64,000 nt of DNA from Patescibacteria group bacterium (GCA_022705745.1 JAKJDW010000006.1:1-64000), one strand, 5' to 3'; positions 1,269 to 15,115 are shown, counted from the stretch's first letter. Notes: generated by a model not told the origin, from the letters alone. A program made the numbers and translations.

Positions 1269-1388
1269 GGAAAATTTTAGTAAAAAATAAAATGAGAATA
1301 TTACAATTCTCATTAAAATCAATGTAATGATAAAAAAACGATTTTCAATAGATTTTTTTAATGGAATTAGATTTTAAATAATTAATAT

Positions 1389-1420
1389 AAAAAATCCTAC
1401 ATGATTAGCAGGATTTTTTT
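1389..1420. terminator. Bidirectional rho-independent terminator
   Basis: AAAAAATCCT and AGGATTTTTT form a stem with an 11-nt loop, and there are T/A tracts on both sides. It separates the minus-strand accessory unit ending at 1494 from nusA. Confidence 0.8.
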
Positions 1421-1493
1421 GTAAATGTGGTTTAAGGATCATTGTGTCGGTAAAAATATAGTTGTTACATTAATTTAATATTAATATTATTTA

Positions 1494-2303
1494 CTATTTA
1501 TTTTTTATTATTTTTGTTTGCTCAAGAGTATTTATAATAAACTCTTTAACTTTATCTTTATCAGGATATCATCCTCGATAGGCAGTTTCATTACTATCTT
1601 CTCCATAATTTATATTTCCTGCCCGTCATCAGAACTCTTTATGGAGAGTTTCACAAAGAATTCAGTTTCCATAAAAATTAACTTCTCAATTATCAGATAA
1701 AATTAAGAGATTGCTATAGCTACCATATAATTTGTCTGCGTAGATGGAAGTTTTACTATGAGTAGAATTTATGATCAAAAGATCTCCATCAAGGAGAATT
1801 TCTTTTTTATTTATTGCTTTTTGAGCTTCTTTTTCGTGTTGAGAATTTATACCTTGAGCCCTCCTATCAAGAGAACGAATATAATCAATATGTCTCCATT
1901 GTTCTTCAGGATTAGTTATTCAACATTGTTCTAATGTTCTAATGATTTCAGGGATATAGCCACGGTCATTTGCAGCAATTAGTTCATCCTCAAGGCTTGG
2001 TTCAACTCCAATTAATTTTAGAACTTGTGAAATTGAGGCTGGGTTTTTAGCAGATTCTCCGTGATGATCTATAGATAACACTTGTTTAAATTTTCATTCT
2101 CCAGCACCACTTAATTCAATAGCGACTGCCTGTTTTCCATTTTGGAGAATCTCTAAAATTTCATTTTCATAATCTTTAACAGAAGCTCTCCATCATAAAT
2201 TTTTATCAATATGAGGAATTCAATATTTTTCTAATTTTTTTTTAATTTGTTGCATTTCTGCATCTTGTCCTCAAAGTAGAAATACTTTTTCTTTATTCTC
2301 CAT
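1494..2303 (-). CDS. DHH-like conserved protein, paralogue A
   Basis: A 269-residue protein, paralogous to the gene at 3801-4568. It begins MENKEKVFLLCGQDAEMQ, has a VLSIDHHGES motif near residue 75 and then AANDRGYIP. The DHH motif and the 'xGGxDxEM' opening recall a poorly characterised family related to DHH phosphoesterases; I cannot confirm the other metal-binding aspartates. UGA codes glycine at several positions. It follows the KH protein at 2366-3376 by 62 bp and is probably co-transcribed from the conserved promoter at 3683-3730. No specific reaction can be assigned. Confidence 0.75.
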
Positions 2304-2365
2304 TTTGTAATAATAATGTAAAATATTTTGAGTAAATGAGAAATGTATAAGATATGTGTTCTTTA

Positions 2366-3376
2366 TTATTCAATCATAATCCTACATTTCAGCTTTTCAC
2401 AAAGTGATTTGATATTTGATCATCCTTTCCCTATTACTAATCACTTATATTCACTAGGAATTTTAATTTTTATAAATGATTTCCCTTGAATAGCATTGGT
2501 GTCTATTAGTACAACAGAGTAGGTGTGGGTGATGTTTCTTCTATAATCTTGAGTACAGGCTATTCTTTTTTGTGCGATGATAAGATAATTTTCTGGAATA
2601 TCATATTCGTGAAAATCTTCAGGTCATCATCATATATCTACTATTGAGATAAATCCATTTTTTTGAGATTTTATATGTTCATCCATTCTTTTTACTCTTC
2701 TTTGTTTAAGCTCGTGTTTAGCTTTTTCAATAATGTCTTTTACTTCTTTGATTTCATTTGGTGAGATTATTTCTTTTTCTTGCATTTCTCAGGTCCAAAT
2801 AATTTGCCATGATGATGAATTATCTGATGATACTATGCCAAATTTTTCTTTTTCATCCTTGTCCATACGACATTGTATGAGCAAAGGTGCTTTGGTAGAA
2901 ATAACTTGAGGTGATGGTTTGGAAATAATATAACGATTTCTGCTAGCAAATCATGATCTTCCTTGATGAGTTAGTGTGTATCATCGTTCTTGAAGTATAT
3001 CAGCTAATTCATTTTTGTCTGCAGAAATACATGGCCATTCAGATTCTAATGATTTAATTTCAAGTTTGTTATCACTTTCAATACCAGTTACATTGTAGTA
3101 ACAAGATGATTCATAATCAGTTGGACTATAATCTCGTTGTGAAATAAGCCAAATGTTTTTTCAAATAAGGTTTTTCATATCTTCATTACTTAAAATTTTT
3201 GGTGTTGTTCAAAAATCGAGATTACGCAAGAGTTCGTCATTTTTATTTGATTTTTCTCATAATGACTCATTCGTTGTTTCATCTACTTCTTTTGTTTCCT
3301 TAGTAGTATCAACTTCTGAAGAAGTGATTTCATTATTAACAAGTTCCTTGTCTAAATTTAAGTTTTCTTTTTCCAT
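2366..3376 (-). CDS. MEKENLNL-family protein with C-terminal KH domain
   Basis: A 336-residue protein in two parts. The first 45 residues are an acidic, T/E/N-rich, probably disordered tail starting MEKENLNL. The last 40 residues contain VIGKGGSNIKSL, a good KH-domain GxxG signature (two of its glycines are UGA), so nucleic-acid binding is likely. The middle is not recognised. The gene at 6539-7045 has the same N-terminus and a similar upstream region, so the two are a paralogous pair. It is first in a unit with the DHH-like gene at 1494-2303, behind a 306-bp leader. Confidence 0.75.
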
Positions 3377-3682
3377 TTTATTGTTTTTTAAAAAGTAAAT
3401 TTTTAGATTTTTAACAGTTTTTTTGTTTAGTTTTTTGTTTACCTGACATCTGATGGGAACAGAAGCTCTTGCAATCCGTCGCAGATACACTTCTCTAACC
3501 GATGATGTCTTGAATATTTGAGTTTATTAGCTCCGTTATAAGAAGGATCTGAGGATATTCCTTTTATATTTGCTTATCTATAGAGATACAATAGACAGCA
3601 CTAGAACCTTCTTATTTTTAATTTAGTAACTTATTTTTTTCATATTCTTTCAATATTTTCGTTTGTTTTTATTTTAACACTC
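3377..3682 (-). promoter_or_regulatory. Long structured 5' leader of the KH-domain gene
   Basis: These 306 bp hold no convincing gene. On the minus strand they form the untranslated leader between the conserved promoter and the ATG. ATAAGAAGG near 3537-3545 can pair with CCTTCTTAT near 3610-3619, closing a domain with smaller hairpins. The layout resembles the leader duplicated at 4921-5245 and 7050-7374, though the sequence differs. Confidence 0.45.
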
Positions 3683-3730
3683 ATATTATATTAAACAAAT
3701 CTGTGAAAAATATTGACAAAGTTGTGAAAA
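3683..3730 (-). promoter_or_regulatory. Conserved promoter/operator motif, copy 1
   Basis: Read on the minus strand, two TTTTCACA repeats 21 bp apart flank a TTGTCA box, followed by an AT-rich -10 region ending near TATAAT-like sequence. The same arrangement occurs at 5198, 5844, 6387 and 7327. A 21-bp spacing is two helical turns, which suits a dimeric regulator on one face of the DNA. Confidence 0.6.
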
Positions 3731-3732
3731 AC

Positions 3733-3764
3733 AAAAAGCTATCTAAAATAATAAGTAGCTTTTT
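3733..3764 (-). terminator. Rho-independent terminator
   Basis: AAAAAGCTA and TAGCTTTTT form a stem with a 14-nt loop and a T tract in minus-strand sense. It ends the transcript carrying the genes at 4637-4912 and 3801-4568. Confidence 0.75.
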
Positions 3765-3800
3765 GTTGTAAATAAATTTTATACAAATACTTTTTATAAA

Positions 3801-4568
3801 TTATTCCTTTTTACTATTTGCATATTCCCTCACAAATACTTCAAGTTCTTCTAAATTTGGGTTTCATCCCCAATAACAAGTTGGTATACTATCTACTAAT
3901 AATCAATCTCAACCAATCCATCCTCATGGAAATTTTTCATTGATTTTTTGTACAAGTTCTTTGTTATCAAAAACATTTACTTCTCCATCTCTAGAGATAA
4001 TAACTAATCCATTGTATTCTCCTGGGTTTAATCGGTGTATTGGAGCACATTTAGAATGAGACATTTTTACAATAGTAATATCTCAAATAACCTCACGATT
4101 GTTTCGAGCAGATTTTGCTTCAGCCACCATTTCTTCGCTAATATTTTGGTTATCAAAAATCTTTTTAGATTCACCTATAACATCTTCTTTAGTAAAACCT
4201 GCACGAAGCATTGCTTTTGGTCATCATGCATCTATTGCAGCTATCATTTCTTCATCTCTACTTGGTTTTAATCCGAGTAAATCGAGAATTTGTAAAATAG
4301 ATGCTTTCTCGAGAGCTCTTTCTCCATGATGATCAATACTCATAACATTCGCATATTCACCTTCACCAGCACCAGTAAGTTCAATAGCTACAGGCTGTTT
4401 TCATTCAGCTATAAGCTGTTTAATTTCTTCTGCATAGTCTTCTACTTTTGCTCATCGACCAAGTCACTTGTCAATATAAGGGACTTGTTCTTTGTCTAAA
4501 ATACTTTTAATGTGTTGCATTTCTGCATCTTGTCCTCAAAGGAGGAATACTTTTTCTTTTTTTTCCAT
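3801..4568 (-). CDS. DHH-like conserved protein, paralogue B
   Basis: A 255-residue paralogue of the gene at 1494-2303. It begins MEKKEKVFLLGGQDAEMQ and carries VMSIDHHGERAL near residue 77 and SIPTCYWGGNP near the C-terminus. The shared features are the GGQDxEM opening, a conserved ELTGAGE segment and the DHH motif. They suggest a DHH-phosphoesterase-like fold, but this is inference. It lies 68 bp behind the small zinc-ribbon gene and is probably in the same transcript, behind the duplicated leader. Confidence 0.75.
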
Positions 4569-4636
4569 TTTTTAATAAATTATAGTATAAAATAAGTTTT
4601 TAAACTCTGTTACAATAGTTTTTTTGTTTTTGATTT

Positions 4637-4912
4637 TTATTTTTCAATACCGTCACATTTTTTTTGGTAATGTTTACAATTCAAACATTCAGATATTCTT
4701 GCTTGAGTTTTACATTTAGCAATATCTTCAAATAATTTTTTATTGGGACCATTTGGATTGAGTTCACAGTTTTTTTCATGCAAAATTAATGCATCTCTAG
4801 ACTTTAATATACTTCATTGATGGTAATAACTTCACGGATCATAATGTCATTGAATTGTTTTCCCACAATGTTGGCAATTGAGTTCTTCACGATATTCATC
4901 TAAAGTGTTCAT
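4637..4912 (-). CDS. Small zinc-ribbon-like protein
   Basis: A 91-residue protein with two cysteine clusters: CQHCG near residue 13 and a C-terminal CLNCKHYQKKC. A third Cys-rich stretch (HEKNCELN) lies between. This pattern suggests one or two zinc sites and a nucleic-acid or protein-binding role. Under standard code the gene is invisible because UGA codes glycine at least four times. It is the first gene behind the duplicated leader at 4921-5245 and is followed by DHH-like paralogue B. Confidence 0.65.
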
Positions 4913-4920
4913 TTTATAAT

Positions 4921-5245
4921 TTTTTTAAAAAGTAAAATTTTAGATTGTTAATAGTTTTTTTTGTTTTTGATTTTTGTTTTTGATTTTTGTTGTACATCAT
5001 ATCTAAGAAATACAAAGATAGATAGTAAAATAAAATATTTAAGATCTTAATTGCATACAAGACTGTTGATAATACTATACAAACAGTCTTATACTATTTA
5101 TATATGTAGTTAGGAGATATTACTCCATCAAGGCATCTCGTTCTCAAGAAATACAAGAGAAGAGGCAACTACATCTGTCTTTTTATTTTGACGACTACAG
5201 TATAATAAAATAATCTGTGAAAAACATTGACAAGTTTGTGAAAAA
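4921..5245 (-). repeat. 325-bp duplicated leader, copy 1
   Basis: This stretch matches 7050-7374 at a constant offset of 2129 bp with only a few substitutions. In minus-strand sense it runs from the conserved promoter to just upstream of an ATG. TGTAGTT near 5105 and AACTACA near 5171 can close a domain containing smaller hairpins (GGAG/CTCC, CTCGTTCTC/GAGAAGAG). It holds no gene and is probably a regulatory 5' leader. Confidence 0.75.
5198..5244 (-). promoter_or_regulatory. Conserved promoter/operator motif, copy 2
   Basis: Same arrangement as copy 1: TTTTCACA repeated with a 21-bp period around TTGTCA, then TATTATACT. It drives the duplicated leader and the zinc-ribbon/DHH-like unit. Confidence 0.6.
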
Positions 5246-5246
5246 A

Positions 5247-5278
5247 TAAAAAACCCATCTAGAATTCAGGATGGGTTA
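5247..5278 (-). terminator. Rho-independent terminator after the lipoprotein gene
   Basis: AACCCATC and GATGGGTT pair around a 10-nt loop, followed in minus-strand sense by TTTTTATTTTTT. Confidence 0.8.
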
Positions 5279-5346
5279 GTTTGTCATTGTTTACTACCTG
5301 TCAGTGACACGCAGGAGTCTTTTTGTACGCGGACTAGGCGGTTGTA

Positions 5347-5390
5347 TATACTGGCTATCGCCGATCTTCGTGGGTATACACCACTGCAGG
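5347..5390 (-). repeat. 44-bp structured 3'-UTR element, copy 1
   Basis: The sequence from TATACTGGCTATCG to CCACTGCAGG recurs at 5975-6018 with about five differences. Both copies lie downstream of a small minus-strand gene and upstream of a terminator. In minus-strand sense GTATACC near one end can pair with (G)GTATAC-like sequence at the other. Confidence 0.65.
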
Positions 5391-5431
5391 TCTATTCCAA
5401 CCCCTGGGTTGGTACCAAGCCTAGAAGTATC

Positions 5432-5767
5432 TTAATATTGCTCCAGCACTTTTATGGGTGCTGTAGTTTTAAATTCCTTTTTGTTTCCAGACAGTAGTTT
5501 ATTTTCATAAACTCTGCTGGATCCACCATTCATAGAATGGTGGAATTTATTTTTCGAATACCACTCAAGGGTATCGTTGTGTTGGGGATAGAACACAACG
5601 AACTTAATGTAGTGTCTACGATTTTTGACAGCTTCAAGGCTGTCTTTTAATGCTATGGAGTCCAAAGGGCTTTCTTTGCTGTTTGTACAATTTGTTGTAC
5701 ATGCAGTCATTGCAACAAGACCAAAGACAAGACCAAAGACCAAAAAATTTTTAATTTTTATTTTCAT
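5432..5767 (-). CDS. Small secreted lipoprotein
   Basis: A 111-residue protein with a signal peptide: MKIKIKNF, a hydrophobic stretch, then LVAMTAC, a fair lipobox with lipidated Cys near residue 23. Lgt, encoded at 26454, would supply the diacylglyceryl group. The mature part is not recognised. None of its five glycines is UGA, and the region is richer in G+C than its neighbours. It therefore reads equally well under the standard code, which suggests recent acquisition. It has its own copy of the conserved promoter and ends in TAA. Confidence 0.7.
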   Translation of the reverse strand: MKIKIKNFLVFGLVFGLVAMTACTTNCTNSKESPLDSIALKDSLEAVKNRRHYIKFVVFYPQHNDTLEWYSKNKFHHSMNGGSSRVYENKLLSGNKKEFKTTAPIKVLEQY

Positions 5768-5843
5768 TTCATTTGTGTTCGGTATTAAACCCCCGTCCCC
5801 GGCTTTATAGTTTTATTTTTATTTTTATTTTTATTTACAACTA

Positions 5844-5890
5844 CAGTATAATAAAATAATCTGTGAAAAATATTGACAAAGTTGTGAAAA
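5844..5890 (-). promoter_or_regulatory. Conserved promoter/operator motif, copy 3
   Basis: Near-identical to the motif at 7327-7373. It lies 77 bp upstream of the lipoprotein ATG. Confidence 0.6.
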
Positions 5891-5895
5891 TGAGA

Positions 5896-5920
5896 AAGCC
5901 ACCCGAAATGCAGGTGGCTT
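5896..5920 (-). terminator. Terminator-like hairpin
   Basis: AAGCCACC pairs with GGTGGCTT. The U tract in minus-strand sense is interrupted (TTTCTCATTTTC). It follows the 6029-6190 gene and its 44-bp 3' element. Confidence 0.55.
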
Positions 5921-5974
5921 AATATAATTTCAATTATATTGATCCCAAAAGAAACACAATTGGGATTCAAAATG

Positions 5975-6018
5975 TATACTGACTATCGTCGATCTTCGTG
6001 GGTATACGCCACTGCAGG
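5975..6018 (-). repeat. 44-bp structured 3'-UTR element, copy 2
   Basis: Second copy of the 5347-5390 element, here bounded by GTATAC at both ends. It starts about 10 bp after the stop of the 6029-6190 gene. Confidence 0.65.
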
Positions 6019-6028
6019 ACTTTGAGAG

Positions 6029-6190
6029 TTACCATCTACCATAGAGCATCCCGTGGTGGACGCCCTTTTTGATGGCTTCCTGGATCTCTTTGTCATAATT
6101 TCTTTTGTGAGCCCAATTACGGGCACTACTTTCTTCCCCTACAGAGGCATATTTGCCCCCTTTGGGGTAATCTTTTTTTGCTCTGCACAT
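6029..6190 (-). CDS. Small basic protein of unknown function
   Basis: A 53-residue protein, MCRAKKDYPKGGKYA at the start and HGMLYGRW at the end, ending in TAA. An in-frame TAA lies 13 bp upstream, which fixes the start. It is rich in Lys, Arg and His. Its six glycines use GGN only, never UGA, and the local G+C is higher than average, as for the lipoprotein next to it. A different frame upstream (6139-6351, GTG start) encodes a hydrophobic segment and could be a separate gene or a decayed N-terminus. No function can be named. Confidence 0.5.
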   Translation of the reverse strand: MCRAKKDYPKGGKYASVGEESSARNWAHKRNYDKEIQEAIKKGVHHGMLYGRW

Positions 6191-6538
6191 TTTTTTTGTT
6201 TTTTAGTTTGCCTACTCTTTGATGGGATTTTCGGCTTACTCCTACTATCTTCAGTAGATAGTACTGTATGCCAGATTAGAAATTTTATCAAGCAAATGGT
6301 AAGAAAAACAAACCACAGGATATTTATAACCTGACACAGAGTACTATCCACTGATGATAATAATTTTTGTTTTTATTTTACTACTACTATATAATATAAT
6401 AATCTATGAAAGATGTTGATAAATCTGTAAAAAACACTTATTGCATCTAATTTGATTAATTTTTATGGAATAGACCTAATATTTTGTGTAATCTATTTTA
6501 CTAATTTTTAAAAAGTATAGTTTAATAAGTATAAATAG
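6191..6538 (-). other. Leader and promoter region without a firm gene
   Basis: Between the small gene at 6029-6190 and the stop of the 6539-7045 gene there is the conserved promoter, a TACTATCT/AGATAGTA hairpin near 6243-6263, and an open frame (6139-6351) with one predicted transmembrane segment whose reality is uncertain. Confidence 0.4.
6387..6435 (-). promoter_or_regulatory. Conserved promoter/operator motif, copy 4 (diverged)
   Basis: Shows the same layout as the other copies, with several substitutions (TTTTTACAG and CTTTCATAG in place of the TTTTCACA repeats). Confidence 0.45.
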
Positions 6539-7045
6539 TTAAAAATATCTTTGAATCTCACGAGCATTGTCTATCTCATAACCAACAATATTTAATATTT
6601 TATTAATTATATTTTCACCTATACTTTCAGGCCTTCGTTCAAAATAACTAAGCCCAACGACTATTTCTTTGTCTTTACAGGTTAGTTTAAGACGATTATC
6701 AGAAAGGCGTTCAACCGTGATAAGTAAATAAACATTGTAATCATAATCCCATGCATATTCTTTAGGAAATGCAACATCATATGTAGCTCCAATTATTTTT
6801 ATATATCATGTACCACCATGATTTGGATTTCTCCTCATTATATTTGCGTAGTAAATTTTTTCAATTTTTTTAGTTTCTAGTGAATCATTCAATTCTTCCG
6901 CAGTTTTTATCCCAACATTATCAATTTGACTTTCAATGGAATTATAATCCGTTTTTTCTACTTCAGAATTAGCTTCGGGCTTGATTTTAGAATTATTTTT
7001 ATCATTAAAATCCCCATTTTGTAAATTTAAGTTTTCTTTTTCCAT
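6539..7045 (-). CDS. MEKENLNL-family protein, short paralogue
   Basis: A 168-residue protein whose first eight residues (MEKENLNL) and disordered N/E/K-rich tail match the KH protein at 2366-3376. The last 90 residues look folded, with HGGTGYIKIIGATY and a C-terminal INKILNIVGYEIDNA, but no KH GxxG motif is visible. It sits directly behind the second copy of the duplicated leader. Function unknown; the shared N-terminus and shared regulatory sequence suggest a role in the same system. Confidence 0.7.
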
Positions 7046-7049
7046 TTTT

Positions 7050-7374
7050 TTATTTTTAAAAAGTAAAATTTTAGAGTTTTAATAGTTTTTTTGATTTTTT
7101 TTTTGTTTTTGATTTTTGTTGTACATCATATCTAAGAAATACAAAGATAGATGGTGAAATAAAATATTTAAGATCTTAATTGCATACAAGACTGTTGATA
7201 ATACTATACAAACAGTCTTATACTATTTATATATGTAGTTAGGAGATATTACTCCATCAAGGCATCTCGTTCTCAAGAAATACAAGAGAAGAGGCAACTA
7301 CATCTGTCTTTTTATTTTGACGACTACAGTATAATAAAATAATCTGTGAAAAATATTGACAAAGTTGTGAAAAT
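7050..7374 (-). repeat. 325-bp duplicated leader, copy 2
   Basis: Counterpart of 4921-5245. The high identity of non-coding sequence placed in front of unrelated genes points to recent duplication or to selection on an RNA structure. Confidence 0.75.
7327..7373 (-). promoter_or_regulatory. Conserved promoter/operator motif, copy 5
   Basis: TTTTCACA repeats with a 21-bp period around TTGTCA, followed by TTTTATTATACTG in minus-strand sense. It begins only 8 bp after the stop codon of the 7382-7753 gene. Confidence 0.6.
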
Positions 7375-7381
7375 TTTTGTT

Positions 7382-7753
7382 CTATATTTTTTTCGCCAAT
7401 ATTTCTAGAAGAGACTTCATGTTTTGTATTAGATCTATCATCTCATCAGATTTTCAAAAAATGATTTTTGACTTAAAATCATTCAATAAGCCTGATATAG
7501 TATCGATAATTTCTATAATTTCTTTTGATGATTTAATCTTATCTATATCTATATCAGATAAGGTAGCGATGATTTCATCTAATTGTTCCTCTTCTTTGGG
7601 AGAAAGAATATCGATTTGAGCTTCTAGATCTTTGAAGTGGGAAAATATTTGGCGTATATCTTCCAATGCTTCTCAGATGTCGTTTTCTTGAAGCTCTTTT
7701 TCCATGTCGTTGATAAGTATGCGACAAGTGTTAAGTAATTGTTCCTTGTTCAT
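7382..7753 (-). CDS. Small helical/coiled-coil protein
   Basis: A 123-residue, acidic, strongly helical protein starting MNKEQLLNTCRILIND, with heptad-like LSPKEEEQLDEIIATLSDIDID and a C-terminal SLLEILAKKI. One UGA codes glycine in DIGEALEDI. No known family is recognised. It stands alone between the terminator of the STAND NTPase gene and the promoter at 7327, so it is probably transcribed separately. Confidence 0.65.
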
Positions 7754-7802
7754 TGTAATATCATAAAACAAATAAAAATAAACTTTAATCTTCGTAGATA
7801 TA

Positions 7803-7837
7803 TAAAAAAAACCTTACGAATTTTTGATGTCGTAGGG
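7803..7837 (-). terminator. Rho-independent terminator after the STAND NTPase
   Basis: In minus-strand sense CCCTACGA pairs with TCGTAAGG, followed by eight T residues. It lies 63 bp after the TAA of the NTPase gene. Confidence 0.8.
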
Positions 7838-7899
7838 AGTATAGTATTTTTATTTGTGAATAAGACGGACAAAGTTGGGAAAAATTATATTTTAGTTTG

Positions 7900-10293
7900 T
7901 TATTTATATTCTTGTTGGTATTTTATGTGAGCAAGATAATCTCAGTTTAACATCAATAGTATATCTTTTAATGAATGTCGGTATAATGTATCTAATCCAG
8001 ATAACATGGTGTTTATAAAATTTCATTCACCCTCTCGTGTAAAACAAAAATTTTTCTTTTTACATAGAGACCATAATTCATTTAAATGTTCTTGTATATC
8101 TTTATTGTCATCACCTTCTTGTATTTCTCTTTGTATATCTTGTATTATTTTTAATCATACATTTAATTGTATTAAGGTTTGTTCTAAACCTTCTTTATTG
8201 AAAGGGAATTGTTCTATTAATTCTTTATCTTTTAATGCTATCTTAACTTTTTCAATGGATGAAATAATATCTTTTTCTTTACCATCAAAAACTTTTTTTA
8301 CAAAGTCATGTATTTTTCATATACTCTGAATATCTTTATATGAAACTTTTCTATTTCCAAACACGGATAACAACGCCTTATTGTATACATTTGCTCGATA
8401 TTCTTTTTCGTGTGGATAACTAATTTCTTTATCTTTATTCTTTTTAAATTTATCTAGTACTTTAATCATATTGTTACTATCCTCAAATCATGGTATGCTA
8501 AGAAATATTGCTATTTTTTCCGGCATATCATCAAAAAAATAAGCTATTTTTGCTATATATTCTATATATTTTTGTGTATCTGTAAATGTGTGTGAATAGT
8601 TAATATAATTAAAATATTCCAAAAAACTTTTGTGATAAAAAGATATTTTGTTGTCTCATTCGTTTTTAAAAAATCCGTATGCAAATAAAGTTTCCAAAAA
8701 TATATCAATTTTCTTATTAATCATTTGATATGTTTTGTGTGTTTCTCGTTTTGTTGTCATAAAATCTAGAAAATCTTCTAACTTCATATCATGTACATCA
8801 AAATGTTTCTTATATTTGATGTAGGCATCTGTTTGTAGCATCCCACCATCGAAAAGATCAGTAAATAAAAATCTTAACATCTCCGCATGTAAATCTCATT
8901 TTGATATAACTATACCATTTTTTAGATTCTTTTGATTATATAAAAAAATATTGTTACTTGCAAAAGAAAGAAAATCTTTCCTTAGCTCATCATATTCTTC
9001 TCCCATAAATGGATTGTTAAGATACAATCTTTCGTTTTCTTCTCAGAAATTATCAGATTTTTGACCTTCTCTTTGATGAAGATACTCAAAAAATTTATCA
9101 TAAATATCTTTACGAGTAATATCTTTTTTTTCATTACCATTTTTATCTACAAAAACTTTACCACCTCTTCATACACTTATTTTTCTTTTAACGATATTAG
9201 CAAGCATTTCTATAATAATGGGTGTCTTAAGTTCACTATCTACCACATCCACTATATCAGTAAGTTCTTTTTTAAATTTTTCTTGTATATGCTCAGGTTT
9301 GATTATTTTTGTAAAACTCTGGATATAATCCGAGATAGCTACTTCTTCTTGAAGTTGATATAATACAACATTTTCTTTTTTTTCTGTTTTTTCATCATTT
9401 TTATACACAAAATCATCATCTACATATCTTCACAAAAGTATTAGTTTCTTATTGGAATGTTTAAATTTATCCGAATTACTTATTTCAGCAAGCTTTTTTA
9501 CTGTATTTGGATTTTTTTCATCCAAAGCATCTATCACAAAAATGTTTTCTGGTCATTGCAATATATTTTCAAGAGTATCTACAGAGTAATCATTGAGATC
9601 TACCTCTTTTACTCGTGTAGAATAGGTATTATTTTTTTGTAGATGTGAGAAATTAGATAGATTCATGAGTAAATATTTGGATAATATAGTTTTTCCTGAT
9701 CATCCCGTGGCTTGAATAATAAATAATTGGTTATTTTCATGGAGAATATTATCAATTAAATCATTGGAAGATAGATTTTCCCCTTCTCAAGAAAGATTTT
9801 GTGTTACATAAAAATCTTTGAGAAAAATGTTATTTCACAATAAGGTATCAATATGAATGTTGTTGTATTTTTGTGTTTGGTTTATTTTTTCTATCTCTTG
9901 TTCTATTGGGGTTTTTGGTATCAATCTTCCATCAGGGGAGGGTATTAATGTTTTTCTATCTTCTTCTATAAATTGAGATATAATAGGATTTGCGATGATA
10001 TTTTTATTTTTCATATATAATTTATATAATACATATTTCCAAAATTCATGTTCATTGTTGTATAATTTTAACATCCATCTACATTTTTCTTTTTCAGGGA
10101 CTCCCTCATCATCAAGATATTCTACAACTATGTTTTCAATATTCTTATCTTTGGATGATATAATAATATCAACTAAAAAAGATAAAATATATGTTCTGAT
10201 AAAATTGCTATTAATACCAATATAATTGAAAATATTTTCCATACTCATGTCATTGGATATGTTTTCTTTTATTTCCTCTAGATATGCATTCAT
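7900..10293 (-). CDS. STAND/NACHT-like NTPase
   Basis: A 797-residue protein from the ATG at 10293. A P-loop QATGGSGKT lies near residue 195 and a Walker B FVIDALDEK near residue 250, followed by KLILLGRY in the place of the NACHT sensor. 'DALDE' is typical of STAND/NACHT signalling ATPases, which includes the Avs-type antiviral sensors. The remaining 450 residues are helical with no clear repeats. The same frame stays open without a stop up to the TAA at 10486-10488, and the 190 bp between (for example EFINLTKQPYSKQG) look coding, so the true N-terminus may be missing or reached by read-through. Upstream in the same frame lie the phosphatase and kinase-like genes. Confidence 0.75.
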
Positions 10294-10485
10294 TATATTA
10301 GTGTCTGCTATAATATTATTTCCCAGTAAAATATTTAGTGTAGAAACAGCACTTTTAAATTCTTCTACTTGTTGTGGATATAATGATATATCGAATTCAA
10401 AAATCTTATTTTCATTATGTACCTTAATTTCTCATTGTTTACTGTATGGTTGCTTTGTAAGATTAATAAACTCTCATGTTTGATT

Positions 10486-11205
10486 TTAAAATCCATAATC
10501 TAGTTGAGATACTTCACTTTCTTTCATATCTTTGATAAGATCAATTTTTGATCTATTATATTTTGCATCCAAAAAACCATTTGTTCCTGTACGATGACCT
10601 ATCATGATATGATGTTTATAAGAATTATTTTGTATATTTTTTTTAATTTTTTCTATATAATCAAAAATCCTTACTCTTGACTCCAGTATTGATTCTGCTC
10701 ATGCTTCGTTTTTTTTTGTTCATTGGATAGGTATCTCATTATTTTGTCTATCTCATTTTTTTCTTGTAGCTAAAGCTCTTGTTAATTTTAGGTGTGGATA
10801 TTTTTCTTTCATTATATGAGTATCAAACATCTCTTTTTCGTTGGGAAATGTTAATCATATTTCTTCACAAAATATTTTAGCAGTTTGCCAATCCCTTTTT
10901 ACTATAGGATCAAAGTGGATACAAAGTTCTTGTATTGGAATTCATAATTGTAAAAAGTTATTTGCTTGTTTTTTAATGCTGGATTTGGGTCAAAATTCAG
11001 ACTCTATTAACGGTTCGTCAGCTTCTTTTCTCATATCTTTTTCCATATTAGCTATGGTTAATCCATGGCGTAATAATCAAACAAAATGTTCTGCTTTTTT
11101 ATTTTGATTTAATGTTTTTAGTAAAGAATTTTCCAAAGAATGATTAGCAAGAGGTTTTTTTGCTATTCATGATTGTTGTTCTATTTCTTTGTCTAGTAGT
11201 ATCAT
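10486..11205 (-). CDS. Histidine (RHG) phosphatase-like protein
   Basis: A 239-residue protein. FVGLLRHGLTIAN near residue 45 matches the catalytic RHG-x-T/S motif of the histidine phosphatase (phosphoglycerate-mutase) superfamily. HHIMIGHRTGTNG near residue 200 fits the second catalytic histidine. It starts 25 bp after the stop of the GHMP-like gene and shares its frame. Its own TAA is followed in frame by the STAND NTPase. This tight order suggests the three work together, possibly on a phosphorylated metabolite or signal, but the substrate is unknown. Confidence 0.6.
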
Positions 11206-11229
11206 CAAATATGTCGTAAGATAAAGTAT

Positions 11230-12948
11230 TTATGTCATTTTTTTTATTATAGTCACAGGAATATTTGTTTTTCCTAATTTTAACCAAAATTCTCTCAAAG
11301 ATCATGCTGACTCGAAAGGGAATTCTTGGTCAGTGCGATTATAAATAAATTTGTTTAGTGGATAGACTATTTTCCCAAGCATTTGATTTTGTTGTCCAGA
11401 AAATGTAGAAGGTCATAACTGATTGTTTTTTATAGTAAAATCAGGAGCTTGTAATATTAAATCAAATATTTCTATGGTAGTAGATTGAGATTTAATATCT
11501 TTTGATGTTAGTGCTTCGCCGTTGAAATATATTTTTCCTTTTACTGCATCCAAAAATAGTCATGAAGTTTTTTCTGGCTCTATATCAGCATAATTACAAA
11601 TTGTTTGTTCTCAAAAATTATCTATCATCACATATACATTTTCTGAATTTTCAGATGAAATAGATGCAAATAGATTTTGTTCTATTTTAATTCCTTGGGA
11701 AGGTGGTGTATCAAAATTGTATTTACTTGCTATACGAATATGGGGGTATTTTGTTCTCATACTTTCTATAATAATTCTTAGTATATCATAATCGCTATCG
11801 TCTTCGAATATTATTATATAATTTCATCCAAATTTACTTGTATATATAGGAAACATACCAAACATATCAGGGGAGACATTTTTTTGAGCACAAGCAGAAA
11901 AAAAGTCATCAACAATATCACTATCTTCTTCTATATCGTTATATAAACTATGGATAGTATTGAAGTGATTTATAAGTTCATATATATACTCTCTACGCGG
12001 TCAATATTGATAGATATGAGAAAACAAATAAAGTGTTTTTATACTCATTGCACTAATAGCATTTGTTATAATTTCATAATATCCATTGGTAGAAAATATT
12101 TTATGGAGATGTGAGTGAATACTATCCCGATTTTGATTATTGAATCGTTCGCTATAATTTTTATTTTTCATTCTGGTAAACTTTTTCTGACTTTCTACCA
12201 TATTGGTATTTGCTCTTTGTCATGTATATATCATCGCCCAACGGATTGGTAATGTGGTAGAAGATATATCTTTAAGATTTAACATTTTGGGTATTGTTTG
12301 ATAATATTCTTTTATAAATTGTATATCATCTAGTTTTTGTATATTATGTGAATCGCTTAGATATACATGAGGATGTGCTGTTTGCAGTAAGGTTGTATAG
12401 TAGGAAGGACCAGAATTCCCGTGTTTTATTTCCCGTGTACACTTATGAGCTAATGTTTTTATTTCATGAAAATGAATACTATTTTCAAAGGACTCATAAT
12501 CATCTAATATGTTTTGCTTGTATTTCCCAGTCAGTATACCAATACCAGTAACAATTAGACTAAATATTGTACCTGTGAACCCTAATCATTCTCCTCTTGT
12601 ACTTTCTGAAACTACCGCTATTTCATATCCATGAGTTTTTTTGTTAAGATTCATTTCTTTTTCGAGAAGATCAAGTCATGGGCCATAGTGACTCTTTATC
12701 AATTCTTTTTCATATTCTAGGAAACGTTCTCAATTATACATAGAAATGTATTCTATACTGAGTCATTTTTGTGGAGTTTTTCTGATCCCCACATAACATT
12801 TTGAATCTATTTTTTGTTTAATACTTATAAAACTATCAACATGCCCTATCCCGGCAGGAAATCGGTTGAATCAAAAATGTCAGCTTATTACAAACTCACA
12901 GCTAGAAAATAAATGTTCTTTTCATTTTTTTATATTTTCTATTCACAT
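11230..12948 (-). CDS. GHMP-kinase-like protein with extra C-terminal domain
   Basis: A 572-residue protein. Three segments fit GHMP small-molecule kinases in order: ISGHFGFNRFPAG near residue 25, a glycine-rich phosphate loop RGEGLGFTGT near residue 120 and SKFGGNYIIIFEDD near residue 370. REIKHGNSGPS near 175 resembles the HGxxSGxD motif. UGA supplies most of the glycines in these motifs. The last 130 residues (NGEALTSKDIKS onward) look like an added winged-helix-like domain. The match is by motif only, and the substrate is not known. It is the first gene of the three-gene unit. Confidence 0.55.
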
Positions 12949-13055
12949 GATATTAAAATAAAAATAAAACTACTTAATTATACAAAAAAAAATCATTTTT
13001 GTCAAATTTTTGAGCTTATTTTCACTACTGTCCAAATAGAAAAAATCAATAACAG

Positions 13056-13086
13056 GAAAATCCGTGTGATTAGCACGGATTTTTTC
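13056..13086. terminator. Rho-independent terminator
   Basis: AAAATCCGTG pairs with CACGGATTTT around a 7-nt loop and continues into TTTT. It lies between the toxin stop and the start of the GHMP-like gene. Confidence 0.75.
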
Positions 13087-13112
13087 TGTAAATACTGTTT
13101 AATATAAACTCA

Positions 13113-13499
13113 TTAACTTAGAGTTTTTTTTCAACTTAGAAGTTTTTTTATTCTATCCTTGTTTTCATTTTTCTTATCAGCTTTTGCATAAATTTCTATA
13201 AATTGTATAAACTGGATAGTTTCACTACATTTATCATATGTGTAGATGAGTCTCAATTTAGTAGTGCTTTTAAGTGATTTACATGCAAACTTTTTAGCTT
13301 TATAAACTGGCAAAAAAACAGATTTTCATAATTGATTTATTCTTTCTACTCCTCATATATTAGTAGGATTTGTTTTTAGTGCTCTTTTAAAATCAGAGAA
13401 ATCTCACTTATCTCCATTATAATTTCATAGTGAGGGATATGATTTTTTTATTTTTTTATAATCATGTATAAATTCGTTGGTATACAAAAATTTAATCAT
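13113..13499 (-). CDS. RelE/ParE-like toxin
   Basis: A 128-residue basic protein beginning MIKFLYTNEFIHDYKKIKKS. The layout fits RelE/HigB-type mRNA interferases: helix-rich N-terminus, central VFLPVYKAKKFACKS, KLRLIYTYDK beta strands and a C-terminal IYAKADKKNENKD. It overlaps the end of the Panacea antitoxin gene by 8 bp (AATGATTAA), the usual coupling of a toxin-antitoxin pair. Catalytic residues cannot be fixed by eye. Two UGA codons are read as glycine. Confidence 0.7.
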
Positions 13500-14220
13500 T
13501 ATATGTGACTTCTGCTACAGAATAAAGAGATTCACGATAGTGAGCTAATCCATAACTAATTTCATCACCTATTTTTTCTGTAGCTTTTCGAGGCATATCA
13601 CCATGAGAAAATTCAGTTAACCATTTACCAGTTTTGTCACTATATTTTGTAATAACGCTATCTAATTCTGCAAGTTCTGTTGCTGAGAAAACAGATAAAT
13701 CTGGTCTTTCGTTTGGGATAAATCTTTGTTGATTATATCAATGGAATTCAGAAGTTATGGTTTTAATGATTCATGCCTTTTCCATGAGTGCGACAACAGC
13801 ATCGATAGATTTTGGCATAGGTCACATTGGCATTTTTATATAGAGATCTCCTGTAATTGAGGTCCAATACTTTTCATAATGGTTGAAGTCGGCGAAATAT
13901 AAAAGTTTGTTTAACACAATCTTTCCAACATTTGGTTTTCCTGCACATTGAGAAAGTATGTACAGAATGGTCTGTATCATTTTGTTTAATGGATGATTTT
14001 TTGTGATTTTGGTTTTTTCAACAGGTTTTTCTAATAAATTTTCAATAGAAAGCTCAAAAATATGTGCAATTTTTTCTATTTCATTCTTTTTAAGATCTCT
14101 TTTACCTGATTCAATATTGGCATAAGTTACTCTACTTATCTTTAATAAATTAGCCATTTGTGCTTGTGATAAATTAGCATAGTTTCTTAGAGTTTTTATT
14201 TTTTTTGAAAGATAATCCAT
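13492..14220 (-). CDS. HTH-Panacea antitoxin
   Basis: A 242-residue protein. Residues 1-60 are an XRE-type helix-turn-helix (LSQAQMANLLKISRVTYANI). From about residue 75 comes a Panacea domain (DUF4065), with the typical LNKLLYFADFNHY and GDLYIKMPMGPMP segments. Panacea domains neutralise many unrelated toxins in PanAT toxin-antitoxin systems; here the partner is a RelE-like protein. The HTH probably autoregulates the operon from the AT-rich region upstream of 14220. Confidence 0.85.
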
Positions 14221-14517
14221 TATAATTTTGAATAGATAAAATCAAATAAACTATAACCTATTTTTTCTTATGTAAACTATATTGAGGTATGTGGTCAAAC
14301 ATGAGTATAAAGATTTTTTTACAAAAATCAAGAAAATTGTATAATTATTTATACTTTTATTTAACATTGTTGTTTTAAACAAAATGACAAATTGAAAAAT
14401 TTTAATATTTATTGAATTTTTTTGAACATAAAGAAATATATTTTCCTTTAATTTTGTATTGTAAAACCGTTAGTATTGACTATATTGTTGTCGTTTTATT
14501 CTTTAACCAAAGATATC

Positions 14518-15018
14518 ATGTATAATGGATTTAATGTGTTTCAACTTGCTTTTTTCTTTGTTGTTCCAGTATTGTTGTTTTTGATTTTGTTTGTACTTTA
14601 TCAAAACCTTTATTGAAAAGATCAGAAAAAACCTAAACTTATTGTTTTATATTCTAAGACTATGATTTGGGCATTAAGTTTTCTTTTTATTATTATATCA
14701 GCAAAAATTGGAGATGATTATTTGGATATGAGACAATCTTTTCAATATGATGAATTAAATCAACAACAAGAATATGTAGATTTGTATGGATGTAGCCAAA
14801 AGTATGGAAACTATGATTATCAATGATGAAGTTCTAATTTAACAGAAGAACAAATTGAAACTTGTCGTGTTGAGCAGAGAGAGCGTCAACAAAAATATAC
14901 TGAAATAAACCACAAAGGTGTGATGTATAAGTCAATTTACCGTGTTTGAATTATTGCTATATTACTGATTATTCACATCATACTTTATTATTCTGTTAGA
15001 AACAGAAAAGAACAATAA
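14518..15018 (+). CDS. Membrane protein of unknown function
   Basis: A 166-residue protein with hydrophobic segments near residues 7-27, 43-58 and 138-158. A polar, Gln/Glu/Tyr-rich loop with two cysteines (YGCSQKY and ETCRVEQ) lies between the second and third. Four UGA codons code glycine. It lies 97 bp upstream of gltX on the same strand. No family is recognised. Confidence 0.65.
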
Positions 15019-15115
15019 TTGAAAAATCAACCATTTATCGTTGAAATTATAACTTATAAAGTTATTTATTGTATTGAATAATTGTTTTTTTTTATTTTTT
15101 TAGTATATTGGAAAT

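What the first reader, a model, noticed from the sequence alone, without database searches (positions are those of the whole stretch)
7900..12948. GHMP-kinase-like, RHG phosphatase and STAND NTPase in one frame: a possible new system
Three minus-strand genes sit in one reading frame, separated only by single in-frame TAA codons with 24 and about 190 bp to the next ATG. The first looks like a GHMP small-molecule kinase with an extra C-terminal domain, the second a histidine phosphatase, the third a STAND/NACHT-like sensor ATPase. A kinase and phosphatase acting on a small molecule next to a signalling NTPase suggests a metabolite-sensing or antiviral switch. The motifs are seen; the joint function is inference.
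Basis: partly seen in the sequence, partly recalled or inferred. Interest (0 to 1): 0.85.

Follow-up and report, generated by a model that had tools for sequence, protein, structure and literature searches.

The report
Kinase-like partner of a phosphatase-NACHT switch
In a group of tiny recoded bacteria, a NACHT protein (the switch type used in immunity) with a phosphatase-like front end always sits beside a gene for a kinase-like protein, apparently an undescribed sensing or defence system; in this genome a stop codon cuts the phosphatase-NACHT protein in two.

Summary
P0001 belongs to a GHMP-kinase-like family with a conserved C-terminal domain that resembles an OmpR-type winged helix; all 51 members lack the catalytic Asp of mevalonate kinase. 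P0002 and P0003 are not naturally two genes. In 9 genomes of the same class their counterpart is one long uninterrupted ORF: RHG-phosphatase-like domain, NACHT/STAND NTPase, C-terminal region. In the window that ORF carries an in-frame TAA, and the 64 codons after it are coding but hold no ATG/GTG/TTG. In a search of 353 genomes of the class, 13 carry the phosphatase(-NACHT) gene; two of these lack NACHT. In 12 the GHMP-like gene lies directly upstream on the same strand; in the 13th, across a contig break. The window operon has a perfect sigma-70 promoter and lies in a 13.7-kb island, absent from the one congener held, with a Panacea-type toxin-antitoxin pair. PADLOC, Pfam and the held papers have no such pairing. 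A defence-type, metabolite-linked NACHT switch is the best reading, but function is inferred. Kinase/phosphatase antagonism is weakly supported: the GHMP Asp is gone and the phosphatase's second His is lost in most homologues. The window copy may be broken.

The parts
11230..12948 (-). Gene 1: GHMP-kinase-like protein P0001, 572 aa, with C-terminal wHTH-like domain
   Evidence: Profile of relatives matches mevalonate kinase E 7.5e-5; family in 53/353 genomes of the class; tree
12571..12609 (-). GHMP motif 2 (glycine-rich loop) SESTRGEGLGFTG, residues 114-126
   Evidence: Alignments with mevalonate kinase and 51 family members
11245..11628 (-). C-terminal domain resembling an OmpR-type winged helix, residues 441-568
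   Evidence: pLDDT mostly 65-86; BaeR Z 6.3, SaeR Z 6.0; most conserved part of the family
10486..11208 (-). Gene 2, first part: RHG histidine-phosphatase-like domain P0002, 240 aa (TTG 11208 or ATG 11205)
   Evidence: His_Phos_1 aligned 45-196, below cut-off; fused homologues
10486..10488 (-). In-frame TAA inside the phosphatase-NACHT reading frame
   Evidence: absent from the 9 complete homologues
10294..10485 (-). 64 coding codons between the TAA and the first ATG of P0003, no ATG/GTG/TTG
   Evidence: Codon score 0.36 bits/codon, equal to real genes; corresponds to a continuous segment in relatives
7900..10293 (-). Gene 2, second part: NACHT/STAND NTPase with C-terminal region, P0003, 797 aa
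   Evidence: NPHP3_N 6.6e-5; Walker A, Walker B and FxHKSFxEYF aligned with fused homologues
9688..9711 (-). Walker A ATGGSGKT of the NACHT domain
   Evidence: aligned with homologues
12977..13005 (-). Sigma-70 promoter TTGACA-17-TATAAT, 12 of 12 matches, before gene 1
   Evidence: consensus match only
13057..13083 (-). Terminator-like stem between the TA pair and the operon
   Evidence: consensus match only

Best explanation
The locus is an operon of a two-gene NACHT system. Gene 1 is a GHMP-fold protein, probably a ligand-binding pseudokinase, with a C-terminal winged-helix-like domain. Gene 2 is a STAND protein with an RHG phosphatase-like domain in the effector position, a central NACHT NTPase and a variable C-terminal sensor region. 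Most likely it is a conflict (anti-invader, abortive-type) system. A trigger felt by the C-terminal region or through the GHMP-like partner lets NACHT bind ATP and oligomerise, which brings the RHG domains together to bind or dephosphorylate a phosphorylated metabolite or nucleotide. The GHMP-like protein binds the same kind of ligand and, through its wHTH-like domain, either controls the operon or docks the switch. Shown: domain content at profile level, operon structure, linkage, island, and the TAA inside the phosphatase-NACHT frame. Inferred: ligand, trigger, order of events and antiviral role. In this genome the TAA may have inactivated or split gene 2 recently.
For: Linkage of gene 1 with gene 2 in 13/13 genomes of 353. 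Gene 2 is a single ORF of 981-1649 aa in 9 genomes, and an ORF open from a contig end in a tenth. The profile of these ORFs aligns to the window read-through protein from RH..., across the TAA, to GxGKT, DxxDE and the FxHKSFxEYF box. Pfam NACHT in L097 1.6e-9 above cut-off, nSTAND5 in L091 below cut-off, HEAT repeats in L075. GHMP: mevalonate kinase 8teb E 7.5e-5 with A1, 2r3v 0.007 with A5, Pfam GHMP_kinases_N in 4 of 9 members. wHTH-like C-terminus: BaeR Z 6.3, SaeR 6.0, YycF 5.1, KdpE 5.0 over residues about 435-568, where pLDDT is mostly 65-86. Window GHMP falls in the NACHT-linked clade, support 98/91. Perfect TTGACA-17-TATAAT 29-57 bp before the start and a terminator-like stem ahead of it. 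13.7-kb island between nusA and gltX, 0.58 kb in the congener. Panacea antitoxin E 2.3e-18 in the same island.
Against: PADLOC has no hit for the window proteins and most homologues tested. Neighbours outside the window are mixed (RNB, PPK2, GGDEF, PALP, Nudix), not a consistent set of defence genes. Most GHMP-like genes live without gene 2. The wHTH match is of middling Z and has no sequence support. Structure prediction of the phosphatase failed (pLDDT 37) and the GHMP core was low. The window copy carries a stop inside the conserved protein.
Confidence: 0.55

Rival explanations
1. A regulatory rather than a defence STAND system: the GHMP-like wHTH protein is a metabolite-responsive transcription factor and the phosphatase-NACHT protein a signalling scaffold that tunes phosphometabolite use (compare MalT-type STAND regulators, from general knowledge).
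For: The wHTH-like domain is the best conserved part of the family, with a near-constant SSYSxNKNEMLGKI stretch, which suits one constant target. Nudix genes, a PLP-dependent decarboxylase, an oxidoreductase and a second His phosphatase sit next to some copies. GHMP-only members are numerous.
Against: Gene 2 is sporadic (13/353), lies in a variable island in the one case with a congener to compare, and its C-terminal regions differ strongly among copies (HEAT array in L075, other sequence elsewhere). This is more usual for conflict systems.
Confidence: 0.25
2. The window copy is only a decaying remnant: the TAA is a nonsense mutation, so phosphatase and NACHT are no longer made as one protein. 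(This concerns the window copy and can hold together with the best explanation of the family.)
For: TAA lies inside a segment continuous in the 9 complete homologues. The 64 codons after it are still coding but hold no usual start codon. GHMP motif 1 differs in the window, as in its two nearest relatives, which lack gene 2 next door.
Against: All other reading frames are intact over 1719, 720 and 2394 nt. The promoter is a perfect consensus and the RHG, GHR and Walker residues are kept. Read-through, re-initiation at 10293, or a base error in the metagenome-type assembly would each leave it functional.
Confidence: 0.5
3. Three unrelated neighbours that share a strand by chance.
For: GHMP-like relatives outside the class have other neighbours. 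P0002 and P0003 find no relatives by single-sequence search.
Against: 13/13 linkage with homologous fused genes found by profile.
Confidence: 0.02

Closest known systems
Bacterial NACHT (bNACHT) anti-phage proteins, e.g. bNACHT25 (PMC12169576)
   Same: Tripartite layout: N-terminal effector position, central NACHT, C-terminal sensor region; Walker A/B and the NACHT F-H-x-S-F-x-E-Y-F box.
   Different: Effector position holds an RHG phosphatase-like domain rather than a nuclease; a GHMP-like gene is always next to it; PADLOC models do not match; anti-phage activity untested.
STAND-based conflict systems of Kaur et al. (PMC7159879, PMC8195603)
   Same: STAND NTPases coupled to enzymes and repeat regions; Nudix among the effector domains in PMC7159879.
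   Different: No GHMP, histidine phosphatase or Gracilibacteria in the text of PMC7159879; no GHMP, histidine phosphatase, PGAM or Nudix in PMC8195603.
Mevalonate kinase / GHMP kinases
   Same: Glycine-rich motif SE.P.G.GLG, GN.SG and GG motifs in order; profile match to 8teb, 2r3v, 1kvk.
   Different: Catalytic Asp of SGVD absent in all 51 members; extra C-terminal wHTH-like domain; window copy lacks motif 1.
Histidine phosphatase superfamily branch 1 (PF00300)
   Same: LLRHG, second Arg, late GHR; Pfam alignment 45-196 of P0002.
   Different: Score 14.9 against a cut-off of 21.7; second His lost in most homologues; fused to NACHT in relatives.

Membership tests
GHMP kinase superfamily | Glycine-rich ATP loop (motif 2, P-x3-GLGSS-type) with the superfamily profile | tested here: met
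   A1 profile against PDB: mevalonate kinase E 7.5e-5; Pfam GHMP_kinases_N in 4 of 9 members; window SESTRGEGLGFTG. P0001 alone has no Pfam hit.
GHMP kinase superfamily | Catalytic Asp of the SG-x-D motif (not universal in the superfamily) | tested here: not met
   No Asp at the aligned column in any of 51 members. The claim is therefore 'GHMP-like', not 'GHMP kinase'.
GHMP kinase superfamily | Fold of the GHMP core | tested here: inconclusive
   AlphaFold model of residues 1-300 below pLDDT 50.
OmpR-type winged helix | beta-sheet, three helices and wing, matched by structure | tested here: inconclusive
   BaeR Z 6.3, SaeR 6.0, YycF 5.1, KdpE 5.0; no sequence-profile support.
Histidine phosphatase superfamily | R-H-G with second Arg and second His | tested here: met
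   Window LLRHG, KRDWQTA, IGHRT; His_Phos_1 aligned 45-196 but below cut-off. Second His not kept in most homologues.
NACHT/STAND NTPases | Walker A, Walker B (DxxDE), sensor Arg, FxHxSFxEYF | tested here: met
   ATGGSGKT, FVIDALDE, LGRY, FYHKSFLEYF in P0003; Pfam NACHT 1.6e-9 in homologue L097.
bNACHT / AVAST defence systems | Match to a described defence family | tested here: not met
   No PADLOC match for P0001-P0003, nor for homologue fusions L068, L091, L094 and GHMPs L068, L075; the L075 fusion hits only HEAT/WGR/Cas2 models weakly.
bNACHT / AVAST defence systems | Protection against phage | not testable with these tools
   Needs an experiment.

The most novel reading that the evidence does not exclude
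A new class of NACHT immunity in recoded Patescibacteria in which a GHMP-fold pseudokinase and an RHG domain bind or process one phosphorylated small molecule, so that the NACHT switch is set by a metabolite signal made or destroyed on infection.
Probability: 0.25. Interest if true: 0.85.

Novelty: new variant of a known kind. Interest (0 to 1): 0.68.

Why it matters
Patescibacteria have very small genomes, and a search of the held papers for NACHT together with Patescibacteria and defense systems found nothing. A linked two-gene NACHT system with an RHG phosphatase-like effector and a GHMP-like partner would add a new effector chemistry and a new kind of partner to NLR-related proteins. It also gives a concrete, small operon to test for metabolite-gated immunity. 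The many stand-alone GHMP-wHTH-like proteins (the family is in 53 of 353 genomes of the class, and in 9 others of 380 sampled across the phylum) are themselves an undescribed family as far as the libraries searched show.

Tried and rejected
Single-sequence searches with P0002, P0003 and the read-through protein found nothing in 40 relatives, 380 phylum genomes, plasmids or phages. The one weak hit (G343) is an unrelated ORF. Profile search was needed. Neighbourhoods of the first GHMP relatives, all outside the class, suggested 'unlinked'; this was reversed once the class was searched by profile. Phylum search with the fused profile gave only the window and a 63-position match in G098, which was not followed up. 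AlphaFold of the phosphatase alone failed. Programmed read-through signalled by RNA structure at the TAA: fold z -1.07, not notable. Sequence match of the C-terminal domain to known DNA-binding families: none. A recurring defence-gene neighbourhood in other genomes was looked for in a small set and not found.

Full report
Setting. The window is the start of a 66-kb contig (G000:C63) of a genome read with code 25 (TGA=Gly). Sampled host genes in the window use TGA for 386 of 639 glycines. The three ORFs use it too: 15, 8 and 14 times.

Observation. P0001 had no Pfam hit. P0002 matched His_Phos_1 at E 0.021, below its cut-off. P0003 matched NPHP3_N (a STAND N-terminus) at 6.6e-5, just below cut-off. 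PADLOC gave nothing for the three proteins.

The GHMP-like family. P0001 found relatives in other Patescibacteria, full-length at 22-27% identity in the best six, and no phosphatase or NACHT was seen beside them. A profile of these (A1) matches solved mevalonate kinases (best E 7.5e-5) and other GHMP kinases, and four of nine members match Pfam GHMP_kinases_N. Searching the whole class with A1 found the family in 53 of 353 genomes. With 51 members aligned (A5), mevalonate kinase aligns through SELPPGAGLGSS and GNPSGVD. At the Asp of SGVD no member has Asp. Several superfamily members are known to work without that residue (general knowledge), so loss of activity is likely but not proven. The last 120 residues are the best conserved part (A6). 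In the model of P0001 they are the only confident part (pLDDT mostly 65-86) and match OmpR-type DNA-binding domains (BaeR Z 6.3, SaeR 6.0, YycF 5.1, KdpE 5.0). Z under 8 without sequence support leaves this a probable, not a certain, winged helix.

The phosphatase-NACHT gene. In the class, several GHMP-like genes are followed on the same strand by a large ORF that begins with an RHG-like motif and contains a NACHT. L075 (1649 aa) ends in an array of HEAT repeats, and L097 matches Pfam NACHT at 1.6e-9, above cut-off. A profile of six such proteins aligns to the window read-through protein domain by domain: from the RH motif to the late GHR, across the TAA, then Walker A, Walker B and the FxHKSFxEYF box. 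The scores in that alignment are low and the homology of the window copy rests on the ordered motifs and the shared position next to a GHMP-like gene of the same clade; the class search with the seven-row profile (which includes the window row) shows family membership of the other loci. Nine genomes have the complete gene as one uninterrupted ORF: L068, L075, L082, L091, L094, L097, L122, L123, L124. A tenth copy, G467, is cut by a contig end (L089, L125). Only the window has a stop inside.

The TAA. The 64 codons from 10485 to 10294 score as coding in the phosphatase frame and in no other. They correspond to a segment that is continuous in the relatives, and the first ATG, at 10293, lies in the middle of it. 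So the window has a fused gene interrupted by TAA 10486-10488: a nonsense mutation, an assembly error, or a rare read-through/re-initiation. No marked RNA structure sits there.

Linkage. With the fused profile, 13 of 353 genomes match. In 12 the GHMP-like gene is directly upstream on the same strand of the same contig (in L068 with one Nudix gene between). In the 13th (G467) the GHMP-like gene and the start of the fused gene end contig C8, and the rest begins contig C7. The 13 belong to families f1, f160 and f163. Two genomes of one genus (G448, G449) match only over the RHG region; in G448 the protein ends in an S4 domain (E 3.2e-7) instead of NACHT. This suggests that GHMP-like plus RHG-like is the core pair. 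In a tree of 51 GHMP-like proteins the window's protein lies in a well supported clade (98/91) with most NACHT-linked ones. Its two nearest relatives (L074, L083, 43% identity) stand alone. A phylum sample of 380 genomes has no other convincing copy. Nudix genes adjoin GHMP or the fused gene in L068, L089, L094 and L122, and lie further downstream in L123 and L124. Pfam confirms five of these; the L123 one is called from its sequence motif only.

Catalytic residues. Arg-His of the RHG motif is kept in all copies that include it. The window and L075 also keep RHG and the second His (GHR/GHK). The others have RHY/RHL/RHF with Asn, Ser or Arg in place of the second His. So the window's phosphatase looks canonical, while most of the family is changed in the active site.

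Transcription and surroundings. A perfect TTGACA-17-TATAAT lies at 13005-12977 before the GHMP start and a terminator-like stem at 13083-13057 separates it from the genes upstream. Upstream are a RelE-like ORF (E 0.07, weak) and an HTH-Panacea antitoxin (E 2.3e-18). The congener G380 has nusA and gltX 0.58 kb apart, where the window has 13.7 kb (1358-15087) holding the whole set. With only one congener, insertion here and loss there cannot be told apart.

How it probably works. From the bNACHT pattern (PMC12169576: N-terminal effector, central NACHT, C-terminal sensor) the RHG domain is in the effector position. I propose that activation clusters RHG domains and changes a phosphorylated small molecule or exposes a binding site, with the GHMP-like protein as ligand-bound partner or regulator. 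Only the anatomy is shown; trigger, ligand and antiviral role are inference. A non-defence regulatory role is the main rival.

Novelty. No paper in the held library combines GHMP kinase, NACHT and histidine phosphatase, histidine phosphatase and STAND NTPase, or GHMP with winged helix and 'fused'. The library is limited to open papers. Filed as a new variant of STAND/NACHT systems.

Noticed in passing
window 13113-14220 (-): HTH plus Panacea-domain antitoxin (SocA_Panacea E 2.3e-18) with an overlapping small RelE-like ORF: a PanAT-type toxin-antitoxin pair 164 bp upstream of the GHMP-like gene.
   Followed up: partly
window 1358-15087: Island of 13.7 kb between nusA and gltX; the congener G380 has 0.58 kb with a small acetyltransferase-like ORF there.
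   Followed up: yes
window 4957-5244 and 7086-7373: 288-nt direct repeat, 97% identical, with related shorter copies at 3654 and 5814, among small orphan genes inside the island.
   Followed up: no
window 6209-6244 (-): Rfam DUF805b RNA (RF02914) above its gathering score, between two orphan genes of the island.
   Followed up: no
L120:1243-2103 (-) (G448): GHMP-like gene paired with an RHG-like domain fused to an S4 RNA-binding domain in place of NACHT; G449 has a similar short RHG match.
   Followed up: partly
L066, L067, L070, L073, L076-L081, L084, L085: A second, stand-alone GHMP-wHTH-like subfamily (MNSKNLKKTY...), in several genomes near gyrB-like and lepA-like genes, looks vertically inherited.
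   Followed up: partly
L123:943-3331 (-) and L124:464-5214 (-): Genes downstream of the NACHT gene include a Nudix hydrolase, a small 101-110 aa gene, and a canonical His phosphatase (L123, E 2.1e-28) or a PLP decarboxylase and FAD oxidoreductase (L124).
   Followed up: partly
L075:3240-5050 (-): C-terminal HEAT array of the NACHT protein made of 93-bp units about 75% alike, suggesting repeat expansion.
   Followed up: no
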